Positions 56,576 through 64,000 of a stretch of 64,000 nucleotides of DNA are shown here, in pieces. The notes beneath the pieces were generated by a model that made no database searches, was not told the origin of the DNA, and saw only the letters and a list, made by a program, of their open reading frames with translations. Every line of letters starts with the position of its first letter. The stretch's first letter is position 1. Source of the stretch: Flavobacteriales bacterium (lineage in GTDB: Bacteria; Bacteroidota; Bacteroidia; CAIKAF01); contig JAGYKD010000001.1 in the NCBI GenBank assembly GCA_018401695.1, positions 970,016 through 1,034,015 on the forward strand, given 5' to 3'. The position numbers were made by a program, and so were the translations under genes.

Positions 56576-58054
56576 TTATCCCGGGTTGCGCTCCAAGAAA
56601 AAGTCGAGCTGTACCAGCTTAAGATGGCCGGTGCAGTCTTGCAGGTTCAAAAATTGTTGCCGTAGCTCATCTACTTTGGCCGGTCTTTTATTTTTGGAGT
56701 GCGCATTGAGCACATCCAAAAAGGCGGCGATTAATTCGGAATTGGCATCGGTTTTTTTGAGTTGCCGTTTTAGGTATTTTTTTTCGGAATCCATGAGTTG
56801 GAAATTGCCTTCTCGGCTTAAGACCATAAGGGCAAAAACGGAGGCGTCCACCAAAACCCATTGGCTGTTTTTTTCGAGGAATTTGGTGTAATTTCTGGCT
56901 TTGAGTAAATAGCTGTAGGCTTTGCTGAATTGGCCTCCATAAAAATTCACTACGCCTTTGAGGTAGAGCAGGTAAAAGCTAATTTTATTAGATGCTCCCA
57001 GCACATCCATTTCGGTAATTTGCTCGTTTATGTAGTCGAGCATTTCCCGGTATTTTTTTTTCCGAATAAAAATGTCGCATACCGAGTGTAAATAATAGAA
57101 GTATACGTCTTCGTAGGGTCTAAATCCTTTGATATCGTCTAAGGATTCGGCCATTTCTTCGATGATACTTTCGTAGAGTTCAAAGCGTCCGGAGTTGTAA
57201 TAGAATTTACCCAGCAAGCATTGAATGGCCGGGTTGCAGTTGGGGTAGTAGAATTTGAGGGGAGTTTTTAAGTAGGTCAGACTCAGCTGTCGAATCCGGT
57301 CTAAATCTTGAGGCTGGGTAGAGCTGCGGTGGTTTAGCTTTACCGAAAGCGCGGTAGATTCAAGCATAAAGAGCGAAATGGCGGCTTGCAATTCTTTATG
57401 GATGCCCTCCATTTCCTGCACAATTTCATAGAGTCGAGTGCTGCAACTTTCTTCTTCCAGATAAAACTGGTCGTGGGTAAGAAAAACCGATTCAAAAAAC
57501 AGAAATTCCAGCCGATTGAACAGGTGTGATTTCCGAGCGGTGCTTCGGATTTCTTCTTCGTGTTGCAATCTTTTTTTGGAGTCGTGGTAATGTAATAGGT
57601 ATTTACAAAGAGCTACCTCATGAGCTCCGCCAAAAAGTTCGGTTTCTTCGGAGCGCCGGGTGAGATCGTTGAGTTTTTTCTCGAGCAGCTTAGGTTGGTT
57701 GGAATACAGTAGGCTGCGGATATTGTCTATGTCTTCGCGCAGCTTAACTACGGCGTTTTTTCCCGAATCGAATTTAAACGTTATGATGTCCTGAAGCAGC
57801 CGATGCTTAAACGTGTAGTACGCACTCTTGTTGTTTTGGTAATTGAGCACCTCCATGATTTCCTGATTGTTGATTTCATCAGTGACCAAGAGGTATTCAA
57901 GCAATTTAATTTTTTGCTTGTCGGTCTTTAACTCCCTTTTGAGTTGGGCAATCTCTACAGTAGAGAGTTGGTGTACAATTTCTATTAAGTCGTCCATAGG
58001 TCGAACGTGTGAAATGTGCTTTAAAACTTGGGTGGCTTGAGCAAAGCTAGCCAA
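56576..58054 (-). CDS. Cytoplasmic helical-repeat protein of unknown function
   Basis: 492 aa, predicted helical, no signal peptide; LSTVEIAQLKRELK...KIKLLEYLL N-terminus; start could be the internal Met (MDDLIEIVHQLS) at 57997. Confidence 0.7.
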   Translation of the reverse strand: MASFAQATQVLKHISHVRPMDDLIEIVHQLSTVEIAQLKRELKTDKQKIKLLEYLLVTDEINNQEIMEVLNYQNNKSAYYTFKHRLLQDIITFKFDSGKNAVVKLREDIDNIRSLLYSNQPKLLEKKLNDLTRRSEETELFGGAHEVALCKYLLHYHDSKKRLQHEEEIRSTARKSHLFNRLEFLFFESVFLTHDQFYLEEESCSTRLYEIVQEMEGIHKELQAAISLFMLESTALSVKLNHRSSTQPQDLDRIRQLSLTYLKTPLKFYYPNCNPAIQCLLGKFYYNSGRFELYESIIEEMAESLDDIKGFRPYEDVYFYYLHSVCDIFIRKKKYREMLDYINEQITEMDVLGASNKISFYLLYLKGVVNFYGGQFSKAYSYLLKARNYTKFLEKNSQWVLVDASVFALMVLSREGNFQLMDSEKKYLKRQLKKTDANSELIAAFLDVLNAHSKNKRPAKVDELRQQFLNLQDCTGHLKLVQLDFFLERNPG

Positions 58055-58597: not shown

Positions 58598-59056
58598 ATG
58601 AAAACCTGGTCTTTAGTAGTTGCATTCGCCGGACTGGCCTTAGGAGTTAATGCGCAAAACGTTGGGGTGGGTACCTCCAACCCCAATGCCCGATTGGAGG
58701 TGGAAGGCACCGGCAATACCAGCGGCACCACCGCCTTAGATGTGAAGAACAGCGACGGCAATTCTATGTTGACCGTTCAGGACGACATGCGCACAGGTAT
58801 CAATACCAATTCGCCCGATGCTTCTTCGGTTTTGGACGTAAGCTCCACCACCGGCGGTGTGTTGATTCCTAGAATGACTGCTGTTCAATACCAAGCTATT
58901 TCTAACCCGGCAACCGGCTTGCTTATCTTTAATACCGACGACAATAAGTTTTATTATTACGACGGTACTCAATGGGTTACCATGGTAAGCGTAGTTGGCG
59001 GTGGCGGTGGCCAAGGCGGTGATCCTACCTTGGTGTACACCGTAGACGGATTCTAA
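58598..59056 (+). CDS. Secreted repeat/tail-fiber-like protein
   Basis: Signal peptide MKTWSLVVAFAGLALGVNAQ; NVGVGTSNPNARLEVEGTGN...GVLIPRMTAVQYQAISNPATGLLIFNTDDNKFYYYDGTQWVTM; C-terminal DPTLVYTVDGF. Confidence 0.8.
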   Translation: MKTWSLVVAFAGLALGVNAQNVGVGTSNPNARLEVEGTGNTSGTTALDVKNSDGNSMLTVQDDMRTGINTNSPDASSVLDVSSTTGGVLIPRMTAVQYQAISNPATGLLIFNTDDNKFYYYDGTQWVTMVSVVGGGGGQGGDPTLVYTVDGF

Positions 59057-59076: not shown

Positions 59077-59571
59077 ATGTTGATTTCACGTGTCGTTTTG
59101 ATGGGTGTGGCTTGGGTTTTGTCTCTTGCAATCATGGCTCAAGGGGGGGCCTTGCAGTACAATCAAACCCTGGTGATTGACCACACCGACGGACTGATTA
59201 CGGTGCCGGCAGGAAAAACCTGGAAAATCGTAAACATGCGCAATACCGGAGGGCAAATAACGGCTACCGGTGCCGTTTCTGGGCACTGCGGCACCAGTTG
59301 TGGTGGAGGGGTTTGTAGCTCTAGCTCTTGCCGCTACCTGGCTTATTTGTACGACATCAACGGAATTGGTTTCAACGAAGCCGTGGGTTGCTTTGTGTGC
59401 AGTGGCAGCACCTGCACCGGAGGAACAGGGAATTGCCCCCCAACACTTACCTACAACGTGAATATGACGGCCTCCCTAAACACCCCTTTTTGGTTGGCCG
59501 CCGGAAATACCTTTCAAGTGAATGTAACCAATATGTTGGTGAGTATTCTGGAATTCAACATAGTACCTTAA
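59077..59571 (+). CDS. Array paralogue 1: small secreted VPAGK...WLPAG...EFNIVP protein
   Basis: Signal peptide; LQYNQTLVIDHTDGLITVPAGKTWKIVN...TPFWLAAGNTFQVNVTNMLVSILEFNIVP; Cys-rich middle. Confidence 0.88.
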   Translation: MLISRVVLMGVAWVLSLAIMAQGGALQYNQTLVIDHTDGLITVPAGKTWKIVNMRNTGGQITATGAVSGHCGTSCGGGVCSSSSCRYLAYLYDINGIGFNEAVGCFVCSGSTCTGGTGNCPPTLTYNVNMTASLNTPFWLAAGNTFQVNVTNMLVSILEFNIVP

Positions 59572-59582
59572 TAGTTTGTGTT

Positions 59583-60002
59583 ATGAAACAAGGAGTAATG
59601 ACGTTGCTTTTAGCCGTCGCCATTTTGGGGTTTTCCCTCAATGGCCGAGCTCAGGGCTCACTGCAGTTCAATCAGGTGAAATTGGTGACCAGCTTGGAAA
59701 CCGTTCCTGCCAACAAAGTTTGGAAGGTGGTATCTGTAGTTTTTGATATTGGAACCACCAGTTCCGGGGCTATGTCCTCCACCAGTTCCAGCTGCTCAAG
59801 CGGCACCTATTATTCACGCAGTATTGTAGTGAATGGGGTGAACACCAAAACGGGCGAGGGAATGCACACCGCTTCCTATTCCAGCCTTTCCTACGCACAT
59901 GGCTACACCGAGCTTCCTCTTTGGCTTCCGGCCGGAGCGACCCTTTCCGGAGGGCCTTGCAACAACCAAATAAGTGTGATTGAATTTAATGTAGTGCCAT
60001 GA
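59583..60002 (+). CDS. Array paralogue 2
   Basis: MKQGVMTLLLAVAILGFSLNGRAQGSLQFNQVKLVTSLETVPANKVWKVVS...LPLWLPAGATLSGGPCNNQISVIEFNVVP. Trimmed from 59328. Confidence 0.9.
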   Translation: MKQGVMTLLLAVAILGFSLNGRAQGSLQFNQVKLVTSLETVPANKVWKVVSVVFDIGTTSSGAMSSTSSSCSSGTYYSRSIVVNGVNTKTGEGMHTASYSSLSYAHGYTELPLWLPAGATLSGGPCNNQISVIEFNVVP

Positions 60003-60394
60003 AACAAGTGTTGTTTGTTGTATTGTCCATCTTGTTTCTTTTGCCCTTTGGTGCAGAAGCTAAGGCACAGTCGCTCAGTTTTAGTCAAGCCAAATTGGTA
60101 ACGCAAACCGAAACGGTGCAGGCAGGAAAAGTGTGGAAGGTGGTGAGTGTGCTTTCCAATGCCAGCTTGAACGTGTCGAGTTTTGGAAGTTATTTTACAA
60201 ATACCCTAGCCATTTCGGTAAACGGACAGTTGACAAACATAAAATCTCGGGTGGTAATGATTGAAAATGACATGGCCGCCGCCGATGGCATGGATGTTAC
60301 GGATCTTCCGCTGTGGCTCCCGGCCGGCACCAGCTTGGGTCTTAACCAGAACGCCACCGGCATAAGCGTCATAGAATTTACCGTGAATCCTTAA
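59999..60394 (+). CDS. Array paralogue 3
   Basis: SLSFSQAKLVTQTETVQAGKVWKVVS...LPLWLPAGTSLGLNQNATGISVIEFTVNP; ATGA overlap with paralogue 2. Confidence 0.9.
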   Translation: MKQVLFVVLSILFLLPFGAEAKAQSLSFSQAKLVTQTETVQAGKVWKVVSVLSNASLNVSSFGSYFTNTLAISVNGQLTNIKSRVVMIENDMAAADGMDVTDLPLWLPAGTSLGLNQNATGISVIEFTVNP

Positions 60395-60397
60395 GCT

Positions 60398-60931
60398 ATG
60401 AAGCATTTGTCTTGGATATGCATAATGTTACTGCCCTTAGTCCTTAGGGCTCAAGGCAGCTTGCAATTCCATCAAGTGCGGGTAATCGACAACAATACCG
60501 TAACCATCCCCTCCGGCAAGGTATGGAAAGTGATTTCGGTATACGGATTGGATTACCGAACCAACGAGTGCATCGATTACAGCAACGGATCCACCCATGA
60601 AGTGGGCCAGTTGGTGCGCTGCTCGGTAGGAAGCTCCTGGCCTACCGGCTCGTTTCGTTACAGCTATGCCATTCGAGGGTTGATTATTGATGGCCGCACC
60701 GTGCCTACCTTTTTGTCGGGATTTAGAAACGGATCCAGCTGCAGTAGCACCTACACTACCACCAACTGCACCGGGAGCCAACCTTCCTGTTTTAATTTGA
60801 GCCAGTTGGCCTGCGTAAACCAAACCGAAGATACCGACGTGCTGCCTCTTTGGTTGCCGGCCGGAGCGCAGGTGGCTTCTACCGGTGCGGGCACCCGTCT
60901 TTCCGTAATTGAATTTAATGTGGTTCCATGA
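60398..60931 (+). CDS. Array paralogue 4
   Basis: SLQFHQVRVIDNNTVTIPSGKVWKVISVYG...LPLWLPAGAQVASTGAGTRLSVIEFNVVP. Confidence 0.9.
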   Translation: MKHLSWICIMLLPLVLRAQGSLQFHQVRVIDNNTVTIPSGKVWKVISVYGLDYRTNECIDYSNGSTHEVGQLVRCSVGSSWPTGSFRYSYAIRGLIIDGRTVPTFLSGFRNGSSCSSTYTTTNCTGSQPSCFNLSQLACVNQTEDTDVLPLWLPAGAQVASTGAGTRLSVIEFNVVP

Positions 60932-61320
60932 TGAAATTAGGTTTCTTTTTGTTGAGCTTTTTTGCTGCATGTGCCTTGCACGCTCAGGGAAATTTGCAGT
61001 TCAATCAGGTGATTATGGTGGGGACACAACCCCAAACGGTACCTTCCGGGAAAGTGTGGAAAGTGAATAGCTTTTTGCAGGCGAATACCACAAACTCCAA
61101 CAATTCCAATAGCACCGTTTGCTCCAGCACCGGGTGGCACAGTCCTTTTATCATGAACGGGGAGCGCTACTACACGTTTATCGGCCTCACTACCGGAAGT
61201 GGAAACTTGTTTATGGCCGTCGGCAATCATATCCCTTTCTGGGCTCCCGCAGGCAACACCTTTCAAACCGTGTGCTCCGGCGATGTGCTTTCCATCATTG
61301 AATTTAACATAGTGCCATGA
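60928..61320 (+). CDS. Array paralogue 5
   Basis: NLQFNQVIMVGTQPQTVPSGKVWKVNS...IPFWAPAGNTFQTVCSGDVLSIIEFNIVP; ATGA overlap. Confidence 0.9.
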   Translation: MMKLGFFLLSFFAACALHAQGNLQFNQVIMVGTQPQTVPSGKVWKVNSFLQANTTNSNNSNSTVCSSTGWHSPFIMNGERYYTFIGLTTGSGNLFMAVGNHIPFWAPAGNTFQTVCSGDVLSIIEFNIVP

Positions 61321-61706
61321 AGAACTTATTCTCTTTAGTATTCATTGCTGTGCTTTCTCTTTCAACCGCCGCTCAGGGCAATCTACAGTTCAACCAGGTG
61401 CTAAAGGTGAGCGATCAGGTGCAAACGGTGCCTGTGGGCAAGGTTTGGAAAGTAGTAAGCTACTGGCAAGGAAACCTAAACGTTACGTCAAATACACAAA
61501 CTACCTGTTCCAACAACAGCCGGCACACTCCTTTTATTCTGGATGGACAAATTTACTATCTGTTTAGAAACGTTTCAACCGGAAGTTCCAACTTTTTAAT
61601 AGCTCCTTCCAACGAACTGCCCCTGTGGCTCCCCGCCGGCACCACCCTTCAAACCCAATGCAGCAAAGACTTTCTTTCGGTTATAGAATTCAATATTGTC
61701 CCATGA
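61317..61706 (+). CDS. Array paralogue 6
   Basis: NLQFNQVLKVSDQVQTVPVGKVWKVVSYW...LPLWLPAGTTLQTQCSKDFLSVIEFNIVP; ATGA overlap. Confidence 0.9.
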   Translation: MKNLFSLVFIAVLSLSTAAQGNLQFNQVLKVSDQVQTVPVGKVWKVVSYWQGNLNVTSNTQTTCSNNSRHTPFILDGQIYYLFRNVSTGSSNFLIAPSNELPLWLPAGTTLQTQCSKDFLSVIEFNIVP

Positions 61707-62155
61707 AACCATTCTTCATTCTAGTTCTTCTTAGTTTTTTGGGCCTAAAGGTTTCCGCTCAAGGCACCTTACAATTCAATCAGGCCTTAGTCGTTACCGA
61801 CCAACTGCAGACGGTTCCGGCCGGTAAAGTTTGGAAAGTAACCGCCATTTACGGTAAAGACGAGGTGTGCCGCAGCGTGGCTCCGCTCTACAACACCTGG
61901 TTTTCCAAAGCCTTGGTAGCCGGGTTTTTTCTGAATGGGGTAGAGGTGCTTTCTTTCCGTAAGTTTCTTACGCAAACCATGTACAACAATAGCCCCACCT
62001 GTACCTCTAGCAATAGCAACGGCTACAATTTTTCCAGCCTAAATTTCGAAAGCGACCCCAACGTTTTGCCCATTTGGATTCCTGCAGGATCTACCGTGCA
62101 GACCAGTGGGCCCAACATTTTTCTTTCGGCCATCGAATTCAATATCGTACCCTAA
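61703..62155 (+). CDS. Array paralogue 7
   Basis: TLQFNQALVVTDQLQTVPAGKVWKVTAIYG...LPIWIPAGSTVQTSGPNIFLSAIEFNIVP; trimmed from 61625; ATGA overlap. Confidence 0.9.
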   Translation: MKPFFILVLLSFLGLKVSAQGTLQFNQALVVTDQLQTVPAGKVWKVTAIYGKDEVCRSVAPLYNTWFSKALVAGFFLNGVEVLSFRKFLTQTMYNNSPTCTSSNSNGYNFSSLNFESDPNVLPIWIPAGSTVQTSGPNIFLSAIEFNIVP

Positions 62156-62547
62156 TGCGCAAGCTTCTCCTACTTTTATTATTCGGAATTTCCTTACAGG
62201 GACTTAAAGCCCAAGGTGCCAATTTAAAGTACAACCAAGCCTTATTGTTGACCAGCCAAGCCAGCGGATGCCAATCCTGTTGGACAGTCCCCTCAGGTCG
62301 GGTTTGGAAAATTACGGGTGTTTCTACCAACTCCAATACCATGACCTCCATCCATTTGAATGGTCTTTCTTTAGGCTTTTTAATAGGAAGTGTCTTTACC
62401 TCAAGCAGCGGCACCTATTTAAATGCTCAATATGCGGATCAAGTATTCCCGATTTGGTTGCCTGCCGGCTCAACCCTAGGTTACAGCAGCATTGGCTCCA
62501 ACCGCAACATCGCTTTCTACGGCATCGAATTTTTAGAAGTACCTTAA
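62155..62547 (+). CDS. Array paralogue 8 (CxxCWTVP subgroup)
   Basis: NLKYNQALLLTSQASGCQSCWTVPSGRVWKITG...FPIWLPAGSTLGYSSIGSNRNIAFYGIEFLEVP; trimmed from 62074; TAATG junction. Confidence 0.9.
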   Translation: MRKLLLLLLFGISLQGLKAQGANLKYNQALLLTSQASGCQSCWTVPSGRVWKITGVSTNSNTMTSIHLNGLSLGFLIGSVFTSSSGTYLNAQYADQVFPIWLPAGSTLGYSSIGSNRNIAFYGIEFLEVP

Positions 62548-62548
62548 T

Positions 62549-62944
62549 ATGCGACGTTTTTTATGCACGTTAATCTTTGGTTTAGGACTTAGCTTGGGTG
62601 CACAGGCTCAAGGAACCCTACAGTTCAATCAGGCCCTGGTGCTCACTGCACAATCTCAGGCCTCCTGCACCAGCTGCTGGACGGTTCCATCGGGTAGGGT
62701 GTGGAAAATCACCGGCTTTTCTTGCAATTCCACGGGCTTGCCCTCTATGTATATAAACGGGCTCGAAGGCTCCGGCATGCTCGGCAGCTCATTTAGCACC
62801 GGATCCACTAGTTATTGGGGCCCGCGGTATGGAAAGCCTACCTTCCCCCTTTGGCTTTCTGCCGGAACAACCTTGGGTTTTGCCAACGGCACTTCCGGTA
62901 TGAATACCATTTTCTATGGCATTGAATTTAATATAATTCCCTAA
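62549..62944 (+). CDS. Array paralogue 9 (CxxCWTVP subgroup)
   Basis: TLQFNQALVLTAQSQASCTSCWTVPSGRVWKITGFS...FPLWLSAGTTLGFANGTSGMNTIFYGIEFNIIP. Confidence 0.9.
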   Translation: MRRFLCTLIFGLGLSLGAQAQGTLQFNQALVLTAQSQASCTSCWTVPSGRVWKITGFSCNSTGLPSMYINGLEGSGMLGSSFSTGSTSYWGPRYGKPTFPLWLSAGTTLGFANGTSGMNTIFYGIEFNIIP

Positions 62945-63312
62945 TGAAGCTCCTGTCACTTTTTTTATTGGCCTTTTGCCTTTCAGTTATGGCATCTGCA
63001 CAGGGAAGCTTGCAGTTTAATAAAGCCGTTTTACTAGAGGCCCATCAAAGCGATTGCGCCAGTTGCTGGACGGTACCCGCCGGAAAAGTTTGGAAAGTCA
63101 CCTCCATGAGTACCAATTCCTCTAATTTGGCCTCCATCCACGTCAATGGTTATACGCTCGGCTTTTTGTCCCGCAGCACCACCCAGTCCGAGTCGCGCTG
63201 GGTCATTGAGTTTCCCCTTTGGTTGCCGGCGGCCGCTACCATGGGCTACACCAACCTTGGCTCCAACCGCAACATCACCTTTTTTGCCTTAGAATTCAAT
63301 GTGGTGCCCTAA
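62944..63312 (+). CDS. Array paralogue 10 (CxxCWTVP subgroup)
   Basis: SLQFNKAVLLEAHQSDCASCWTVPAGKVWKVTSMS...FPLWLPAAATMGYTNLGSNRNITFFALEFNVVP; TAATG junction. Confidence 0.9.
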   Translation: MKLLSLFLLAFCLSVMASAQGSLQFNKAVLLEAHQSDCASCWTVPAGKVWKVTSMSTNSSNLASIHVNGYTLGFLSRSTTQSESRWVIEFPLWLPAAATMGYTNLGSNRNITFFALEFNVVP

Positions 63313-63490
63313 GGTTTATTTTTTTGGGCGGCCGGGCGGGCTGCTGCCTGCAAGTCCGCGCATCCAAACCAAGGGTGGCGGGGCCGCAGCGCCCTTCGCT
63401 AAAGCTCAGTGGCTGCAACCCTCGCCCCCCTTTGGCTTGGCTGCTTGCGGGCTTTCCGGCGCATCCCTGCCGCATCTTCTTCCAAACACA
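63313..63490. repeat. Intergenic repeat family 2-like GC-rich element interrupting the array
   Basis: ttttttgggcggccgggcgggctgctgcctgc...ggggccgcagcgcccttcgct...; GC-rich, non-coding, only long gap in the array. Confidence 0.45.
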
Positions 63491-63501
63491 AGTTTCTGCT
63501 C

Positions 63502-63885
63502 ATGAAAAATCTAGTCGTTTGTACCATCTTTTTGTTTGCCTTCTTCTGGGCCAACACCGGCTCGGCTCAATCCCTACAATTTAGCCGGGTAATGCTTGTC
63601 ACCAATCTGCAAACCGTGCCGGCCGGAAAAGTATGGAAGGTAGAATCGGCGATGCTTACCGGAAACCTTGGCATCAACACCGGAACAACCTCCTATCAAA
63701 CCCAATCAGCAATCATCCGTGTGGATGGCCAAAACATAAACCTTATGCACACGTTTGGCAATTCCTACGGGGTGCAATTTCAAGAACTGACTCGTCTGCC
63801 CATGTGGCTACCTGCAGGAACTACCCTAGAGCCTTCTACCAACATTGGTAAAATAAGCATCATCGAATTTACCGTTGTGCCATGA
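63502..63885 (+). CDS. Array paralogue 11
   Basis: SLQFSRVMLVTNLQTVPAGKVWKVESA...LPMWLPAGTTLEPSTNIGKISIIEFTVVP; trimmed from 63409. Confidence 0.9.
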   Translation: MKNLVVCTIFLFAFFWANTGSAQSLQFSRVMLVTNLQTVPAGKVWKVESAMLTGNLGINTGTTSYQTQSAIIRVDGQNINLMHTFGNSYGVQFQELTRLPMWLPAGTTLEPSTNIGKISIIEFTVVP

Positions 63886-64000
63886 AACAGCTTCTTTTTT
63901 TAGTTTTCTTAGGTTTTGGAGCTTTGCTTCATGGCCAGAGCCTTCAATTTAGCCAAGTGAAACTGGTAACCAACCAAGAAACCGTCCCCGCCGGAAAAGT
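63882..64000 (+). CDS. Array paralogue 12, truncated by window end
   Basis: MKQLLFLVFLGFGALLHGQSLQFSQVKLVTNQETVPAGK...; ATGA overlap with paralogue 11. Confidence 0.85.
   Translation, partial: MKQLLFLVFLGFGALLHGQSLQFSQVKLVTNQETVPAGK

What the first reader, a model, noticed from the sequence alone, without database searches (positions are those of the whole stretch)
59077..64000. Tandem array of 12 or more paralogous small secreted proteins with a shared undescribed-looking domain
Twelve consecutive same-strand genes each encode a signal peptide ending about AQ(G), then (S/T/N)LQFNQ(V/A)..., TVPxGKVWKV, a divergent middle of about 30-90 aa, (L/F)PxWLPAGxxL, and a C-terminal (I/V)SxIEFNxVP. 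They lack T9SS-type C-terminal sorting domains. Middle sections differ strongly in length and Cys content while the framing motifs stay fixed, which suggests one compact (probably beta-sandwich) fold diversified by duplication. Possible roles are a secreted multi-subunit surface or fibre assembly, a set of binding or recognition proteins, or effectors. The array continues beyond 64000, so total copy number is unknown.
Basis: partly seen in the sequence, partly recalled or inferred. Interest (0 to 1): 0.93.

Follow-up and report, generated by a model that had tools for sequence, protein, structure and literature searches.

The report
Multi-gene cassette for a surface fibre
A run of about 18 related small exported proteins, always built from the same conserved parts list (a fibre-like starter protein with a fixed tail, many β-sandwich subunits ending in the same proline, and a terminal relative), looks like an undescribed surface-structure system of mostly uncultured aquatic Bacteroidota.

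Summary
The array is real and larger than seen: 12 genes in the window, 18 in the genome, plus a divergent terminal relative and then a T9SS-sorted protein. The family has no match in Pfam, NCBIfam, PHROGs or the PDB. Two members model confidently as one ~110-residue β-sandwich (pLDDT 87) without a significant structural relative. All five sampled genus-mates carry the same locus. Most members have orthologues between species, and the closest pair shows purifying selection (ω about 0.1) in the variable middles too. This argues against an arms-race or effector repertoire.

New here: (1) 382 of 386 complete homologues end exactly in proline. (2) The gene just upstream ends in ..TLIYTxDGF in nearly every lineage; elsewhere it is a collagen-repeat fibre protein. 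(3) A divergent family relative closes many arrays and occurs only in genomes that have the family (8 of 8 among 395). (4) A T9SS-sorted protein sits at a recurrent end of the cluster. (5) Circularly permuted copies of the domain head Gly-rich and collagen-like proteins.

Best reading: a secreted, heteromeric surface fibre or appendage nucleated by a trimeric stalk. Assembly, location and function are inferred, not shown.

The parts
58598..59056 (+). Starter ('scaffold') gene: signal peptide, fibre-type repeats (GVGTSNPNARLEV.. GVLIPRMT..FYYYDGTQWV), C-terminus ..DPTLVYTVDGF
   Evidence: the same C-terminus lies directly upstream of the arrays in five genus-mates and other lineages; collagen repeats in L064 and L106 versions.
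59077..59571 (+). Family gene 1 (164 aa, 8 Cys in the mature part)
59583..60002 (+). Family gene 2 (139 aa); structure modelled, pLDDT 87.2, pTM 0.79
   Evidence: reciprocal best hits in all five genus-mates at 68-88% identity
59999..60394 (+). Family gene 3 (131 aa)
60398..60931 (+). Family gene 4 (177 aa)
60928..61320 (+). Family gene 5 (130 aa)
61317..61706 (+). Family gene 6 (129 aa); structure modelled, pLDDT 86.6, pTM 0.80
61703..62155 (+). Family gene 7 (150 aa)
   Evidence: orthologues at 70-77% identity in the four more distant genus-mates
62155..62547 (+). Family gene 8 (130 aa, CxxCW type)
62549..62944 (+). Family gene 9 (131 aa, CxxCW type)
62944..63312 (+). Family gene 10 (122 aa, CxxCW type)
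63502..63885 (+). Family gene 11 (127 aa)
63882..64000 (+). Start of family gene 12 (132 aa; continues to window-equivalent 64280). Six more family genes follow to 67339, then the terminal gene 67344-67877, a 1014-aa T9SS-CTD protein 67935-70979 and a terminator-like stem at about 71003-71018
   Evidence: locus L009; window coordinate = L009 coordinate + 55984

Best explanation
The locus is one co-expressed cassette for an exported, heteromeric surface fibre or appendage. The upstream gene makes a fibre-type protein whose C-terminal peptide (..LIYTxDGF) is the attachment or nucleation point. The tandem genes make the building blocks: one beta-sandwich domain each, in distinct conserved versions, whose free N- and C-terminal strands lie side by side and whose chain ends at an invariant proline. 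The divergent last gene makes an end piece. The following T9SS-sorted protein brings the structure to, or anchors it at, the outer surface. Shown: family membership, gene order, fixed C-termini, co-occurrence, purifying selection, predicted fold. Inferred from sequence: signal peptides. Inferred only: export to the surface, assembly into one structure, roles of starter and end piece, an adhesive or protective function.
For: Same order starter - 17 to 22 subunits in view - (end piece - T9SS protein where the contig reaches) in six species of the genus. Outside the genus, 22 of 23 visible same-strand 5' ends carry the DGF-tailed gene, counting two variant tails (my tally, genus-mate loci included; Gly-rich breaks inside one array not counted), and all 20 ORFs with the motif are family-adjacent. 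A DNA pattern for the tail hits 7 of 395 class genomes: six are upstream of family genes, one is antisense chance. PF01391 collagen repeats in the starters of L064 and L106, and a Peptidase_S74 trimer chaperone in a sister gene of L064. The end piece occurs in 8/395 genomes, all family-positive (24/395). Por_Secre_tail in the adjacent proteins of the own locus and L062. Permuted copies of the domain fused to Gly-rich or collagen-like chains show that the termini are adjacent and that the domain belongs to fibre-type proteins. Omega about 0.1 and conserved orthologues point to specialised subunits.
Against: The subunits lack a sorting domain of their own, so surface export is not explained and a periplasmic place is possible. 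No complex could be modelled. In this genus the starter has no collagen repeats; only other lineages do. The idea that the starter tail mimics the first strand of the subunits (donor strand) failed a profile test. Six family loci stand alone in the genome without starter or end piece. Co-occurrence counts are not corrected for phylogeny.
Confidence: 0.5

Rival explanations
1. Secreted binding proteins: each paralogue is an independent, soluble or loosely surface-bound lectin-like or ligand-binding protein, expanded to cover many ligands such as algal polysaccharides, and the operon is only co-regulation.
For: Long divergent middles of varying length and Cys number; dispersed single copies in the genome; mostly freshwater metagenome origin.
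Against: The fixed starter and end piece, the exact C-terminus and permuted copies inside fibre-type proteins are not expected of independent binders. No known carbohydrate-binding family matched.
Confidence: 0.25
2. Diversifying effector, toxin or phage-evasion repertoire under an arms race.
For: Tandem paralogues with variable middles; copy number varies between species.
Against: Omega about 0.10 in the middle, 0.10 in the N-frame, 0.08 in the C-frame; 18:18 one-to-one orthologues with the closest species; no immunity-like gene between members.
Confidence: 0.05
3. Virion or tail-fibre genes of an integrated phage.
For: The starters and their sisters carry fibre-type domains and Peptidase_S74; the fold recalls viral jelly rolls weakly.
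Against: No relative confirmed in IMG/VR or phage records (best E = 6); no PHROG match below E = 0.05; no phage genes seen around the locus, and it is conserved across the genus.
Confidence: 0.04
4. A periplasmic or outer-membrane-associated scaffold (not exported), with the T9SS protein a mere neighbour.
For: Signal peptide but no sorting domain, lipobox or anchor on the subunits.
Against: A T9SS-sorted protein recurs at the cluster end in several lineages, and collagen-like starters are typical surface proteins.
Confidence: 0.16

Closest known systems
Bacterial collagen-like surface proteins (BclA, Scl, Lcl; reviewed in PMC8968730)
   Same: Collagen repeats in the starters of some lineages (PF01391) and a role as an exported stalk is plausible.
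   Different: Their non-collagenous domains are part of the same chain; here the beta-sandwich subunits are separate genes in 2-22 versions and the starter ends in a short fixed peptide.
C1q/TNF-type jelly-roll heads on collagen stalks
   Same: Beta-sandwich of similar size; a collagen stalk in the system.
   Different: No C1q or TNF structure among the top Foldseek matches, and the heads are not fused to the stalk except in the rare permuted copies.
Nucleoplasmin, cupin and viral jelly-roll folds
   Same: Weak fold resemblance.
   Different: No match at E <= 0.001, best PDB E 0.06-0.08, TM at most 0.51; no sequence relation.
T9SS CTD cargo of Bacteroidota
   Same: A Por_Secre_tail protein follows the array; the genome has SprA.
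   Different: The 18 subunits have no such domain.
Chaperone-usher and type V pili
   Same: Multi-gene sets of beta-sandwich subunits with base and tip versions.
   Different: No usher, chaperone or pilin family matched in the locus, and the donor-strand idea for the starter tail failed.

Membership tests
T9SS cargo (type A CTD) | Por_Secre_tail sorting domain on the protein | tested here: not met
   No member of the array matches; the flanking 1014-aa protein does, E = 5.5e-9.
Bacterial collagen-like protein | Gly-X-Y repeat region (PF01391) | tested here: not met
   Not in the array subunits, nor in the window's starter. Met in the homologously placed starters of L064 (1.6e-26) and L106 (2.1e-19).
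C1q/TNF superfamily | C1q/TNF jelly-roll fold or profile | tested here: not met
   No Pfam match; not among the best 50 Foldseek PDB matches.
C1q/TNF superfamily | Trimeric assembly | not testable with these tools
   Only monomers can be modelled.
Nucleoplasmin, cupin or viral jelly roll | Significant structural match | tested here: inconclusive
   Best PDB E 0.06-0.08, TM at most 0.51; best viral E 0.0076 with TM 0.41.
Chaperone-usher or type V pilin | Pilin, usher or chaperone domains in the locus | tested here: not met
   Pfam scans of the array and its flanks show none.
Phage structural protein | Relatives in viral genomes | tested here: not met
   IMG/VR scan without a confirmed relative, phage records best E = 6, PHROGs nothing below 0.05.
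Any named Pfam, NCBIfam or PDB family | Match over the curated cut-off | tested here: not met

The most novel reading that the evidence does not exclude
A previously undescribed class of bacterial surface appendage, in which a trimeric stalk with a fixed C-terminal docking peptide (LIYTxDGF) is capped or extended by an ordered set of up to about 20 non-covalent beta-sandwich subunits and closed by a dedicated end piece, exported with the help of a T9SS partner.
Probability: 0.3. Interest if true: 0.9.

Novelty: new variant of a known kind. Interest (0 to 1): 0.72.

Why it matters
It adds a protein family absent from current libraries that takes up to 42 profile matches in a 2.5-Mb genome, and ties it to fixed partners. 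That turns a list of hypothetical proteins into a testable parts list for a surface structure of mostly uncultured aquatic Bacteroidota. The exact C-termini on two partners (..DGF and ..P) give sharp handles for experiments. The natural circular permutants show how a free subunit and a built-in domain of a fibre protein can interconvert.

Tried and rejected
Donor-strand idea (starter tail mimics subunit strand A): the profile score of the tails is no better than that of about 20% of unrelated C-termini; dropped. A subunit type shared by every array: a motif test found it in only 11 of 45 loci; not claimed. Phage origin: no support. Arms race: rejected by ω. Bacteroidota promoter scan: one match in 20 kb, no more than chance; sigma-70-type sites and terminators near shuffled levels, apart from one plausible stem after the T9SS gene. 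Literature searches found no description of the system, within an open-access library only. The pattern match in G161 is antisense to a T9SS gene and counts as chance.

Full report
What is there. The window lies at G000:C1:970016-1034015 of a 2.99-Mb genome. From 59077 to the window's right edge there are 12 same-strand paralogues. The genome continues the run to 18, ending at window-equivalent 67339. Sixteen of 17 junctions are 11 nt or less and ten overlap, so a single operon with translational coupling is likely. The exception is a 189-bp spacer at 63313-63501, which is a dispersed repeat with matches at 12 places in the genome. Directly upstream (58598-59056) is a fibre-type protein ending DPTLVYTVDGF. 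Directly downstream are a 177-aa divergent relative with a helical-looking N-terminal insert and a 1014-aa protein with PKD domains and a Por_Secre_tail. A terminator-like stem follows that gene.

The family. Eighteen members share 12 invariant columns. Pfam, NCBIfam, PHROGs and PDB sequences give nothing significant. A profile finds six further loci in the genome, one of them a two-domain protein. In a set of 425 unique homologous ORFs from fetched loci, 386 complete ones match to the profile end, and 382 of these end exactly in Pro; ORFs that do not reach the profile end are not counted. AlphaFold2 models of two members (39% identical) both reach pLDDT 87 and pTM 0.8 with the same order of strands: a long first strand, TVP, a second strand, a variable middle, short strands, the WLPAG region and a long last strand. 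Foldseek finds no match at E <= 0.001. The best hits are weak nucleoplasmin, cupin and viral jelly rolls.

Distribution. All five other sampled genomes of the genus carry 28-42 matches and the same locus. In the class, 24 of 395 genomes have the domain. In a phylum-wide draw, only the own genome of 348 has it. Named hits are nearly all uncultured aquatic Flavobacteriales and related MAGs.

Selection. Between the own genome and its nearest relative, the 18 genes pair one-to-one. Pooled ω is 0.10 in the N-terminal frame, 0.10 in the middle and 0.08 in the C-terminal frame, and 0.30 in the signal peptide (Nei-Gojobori, dS high in places and in one gene saturated, so values are rough). Against the more distant genus-mates, roughly ten to twelve members still have reciprocal best hits at 41-77% identity, with lineage-specific expansions such as genes 15-18. 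This is the pattern of specialised parts, not of a rapidly renewed repertoire.

Conserved neighbours. Open reading frames around the 70 named loci were clustered. The commonest non-family neighbour is a fibre-type protein (35 loci). Of ORFs that end in the [LIV][IV]YTxDGF-like motif, 20 of 20 are directly next to family genes, nearly always just upstream on the same strand. By my tally, 22 of 23 visible same-strand 5' array ends have it, counting the variants TMIYLSDGF and LVHTVKGF. A degenerate DNA pattern for the tail was then run over 395 class genomes: seven matches, six next to family genes, the seventh antisense to an unrelated gene. The starters of L064 and L106 contain collagen triple-helix repeats, and a sister gene of L064 with the same N-terminus ends in Peptidase_S74, a trimer chaperone.

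End pieces. A second recurrent neighbour is the short protein that closes many arrays (DTSFVKSAYGGSSLTVPEG..GDGYNILIS..). It is a divergent member of the family: hhalign gives 97.5% probability over 33 columns around VPxGKxW. In 395 genomes it occurs in eight, all family-positive. The count by genus is 4 of 4; kinship inflates the genome count. In several lineages two divergent arms flank the starter region, and one arm ends in the end piece while the other ends in a 173-178-aa protein of the type that has Por_Secre_tail in L062. In the genus both follow the single arm. In L141, of another family, the end piece is followed by a protein resembling the genus's 1014-aa one.

Circular permutants. 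In L033, L085, L149, L150 and L151 the second half of the domain comes first, right after the signal peptide, and the first half follows after a few residues (..SVIEFTINGTTLDYSQN..TVPAGKVWKIES..). The chains then continue as Gly-rich or other fibre-type sequence; L034/L152, cut at its start by the contig end, continues with GTNGTNG and GPxG repeats. So the first and last strands of the domain can be joined by a short turn, the termini of a free subunit lie together, and the domain also lives inside fibre-type proteins. The invariant final proline is absent from these joined forms.

Interpretation. The simplest account is a cassette for a multi-part exported structure: starter, graded set of subunits, end piece, T9SS-sorted partner. 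The collagen and trimer-chaperone features make a fibre or stalked surface assembly the best guess. What is shown is the parts list, its conservation and the fold; assembly, place and function are inference. The neat donor-strand version of the model was tested and not supported. The rival that members are independent secreted binders remains open at about one in four.

Limits. Adjacency tallies rest on simple ORF calling, and many MAG contigs end inside the arrays. No signal-peptide predictor, multimer modelling or expression data were available. The literature library is open-access only, so an earlier description elsewhere cannot be excluded.

Noticed in passing
window 63313-63501: The 189-bp spacer between family genes 10 and 11 is a dispersed repeat with 12 matches in the own genome.
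   Followed up: partly
window 56576-57997 (- strand): A divergently transcribed 473-aa gene without Pfam match (MDDLIEIVHQLS..) is conserved next to the array in the genus.
   Followed up: partly
L025 4582-5751 (- strand) and L084 2629-3744: Two-domain version of the family (389 aa), without the C-terminal proline.
   Followed up: partly
L149, L150, L151, L033, L085: Natural circular permutants of the domain at the N-terminus of Gly-rich or fibre-type proteins; L150 and L151 also have a domain in normal order at the C-terminus.
   Followed up: yes
L087 6338-9366, L064 1827-4137: Paralogues in one array share nearly identical signal peptides but differ in the rest, which suggests recent gene conversion or duplication of 5' ends.
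   Followed up: no
L064, L083, L110, L117 (records titled Chryseobacterium gleum); L114, L119 (Lishizhenia tianjinensis): MAG records with species names that probably do not fit: their loci resemble those of other uncultured Flavobacteriales.
   Followed up: no
G005:C43:12983-13348: One array copy in a genus-mate has an in-frame TAA, a likely pseudogene or assembly error.
   Followed up: no
L025 3301-3831 (- strand): An ORF made of repeats of about 17 aa (MELQRFRSYGAGRGFAP), probably a repeat element rather than a gene.
   Followed up: no
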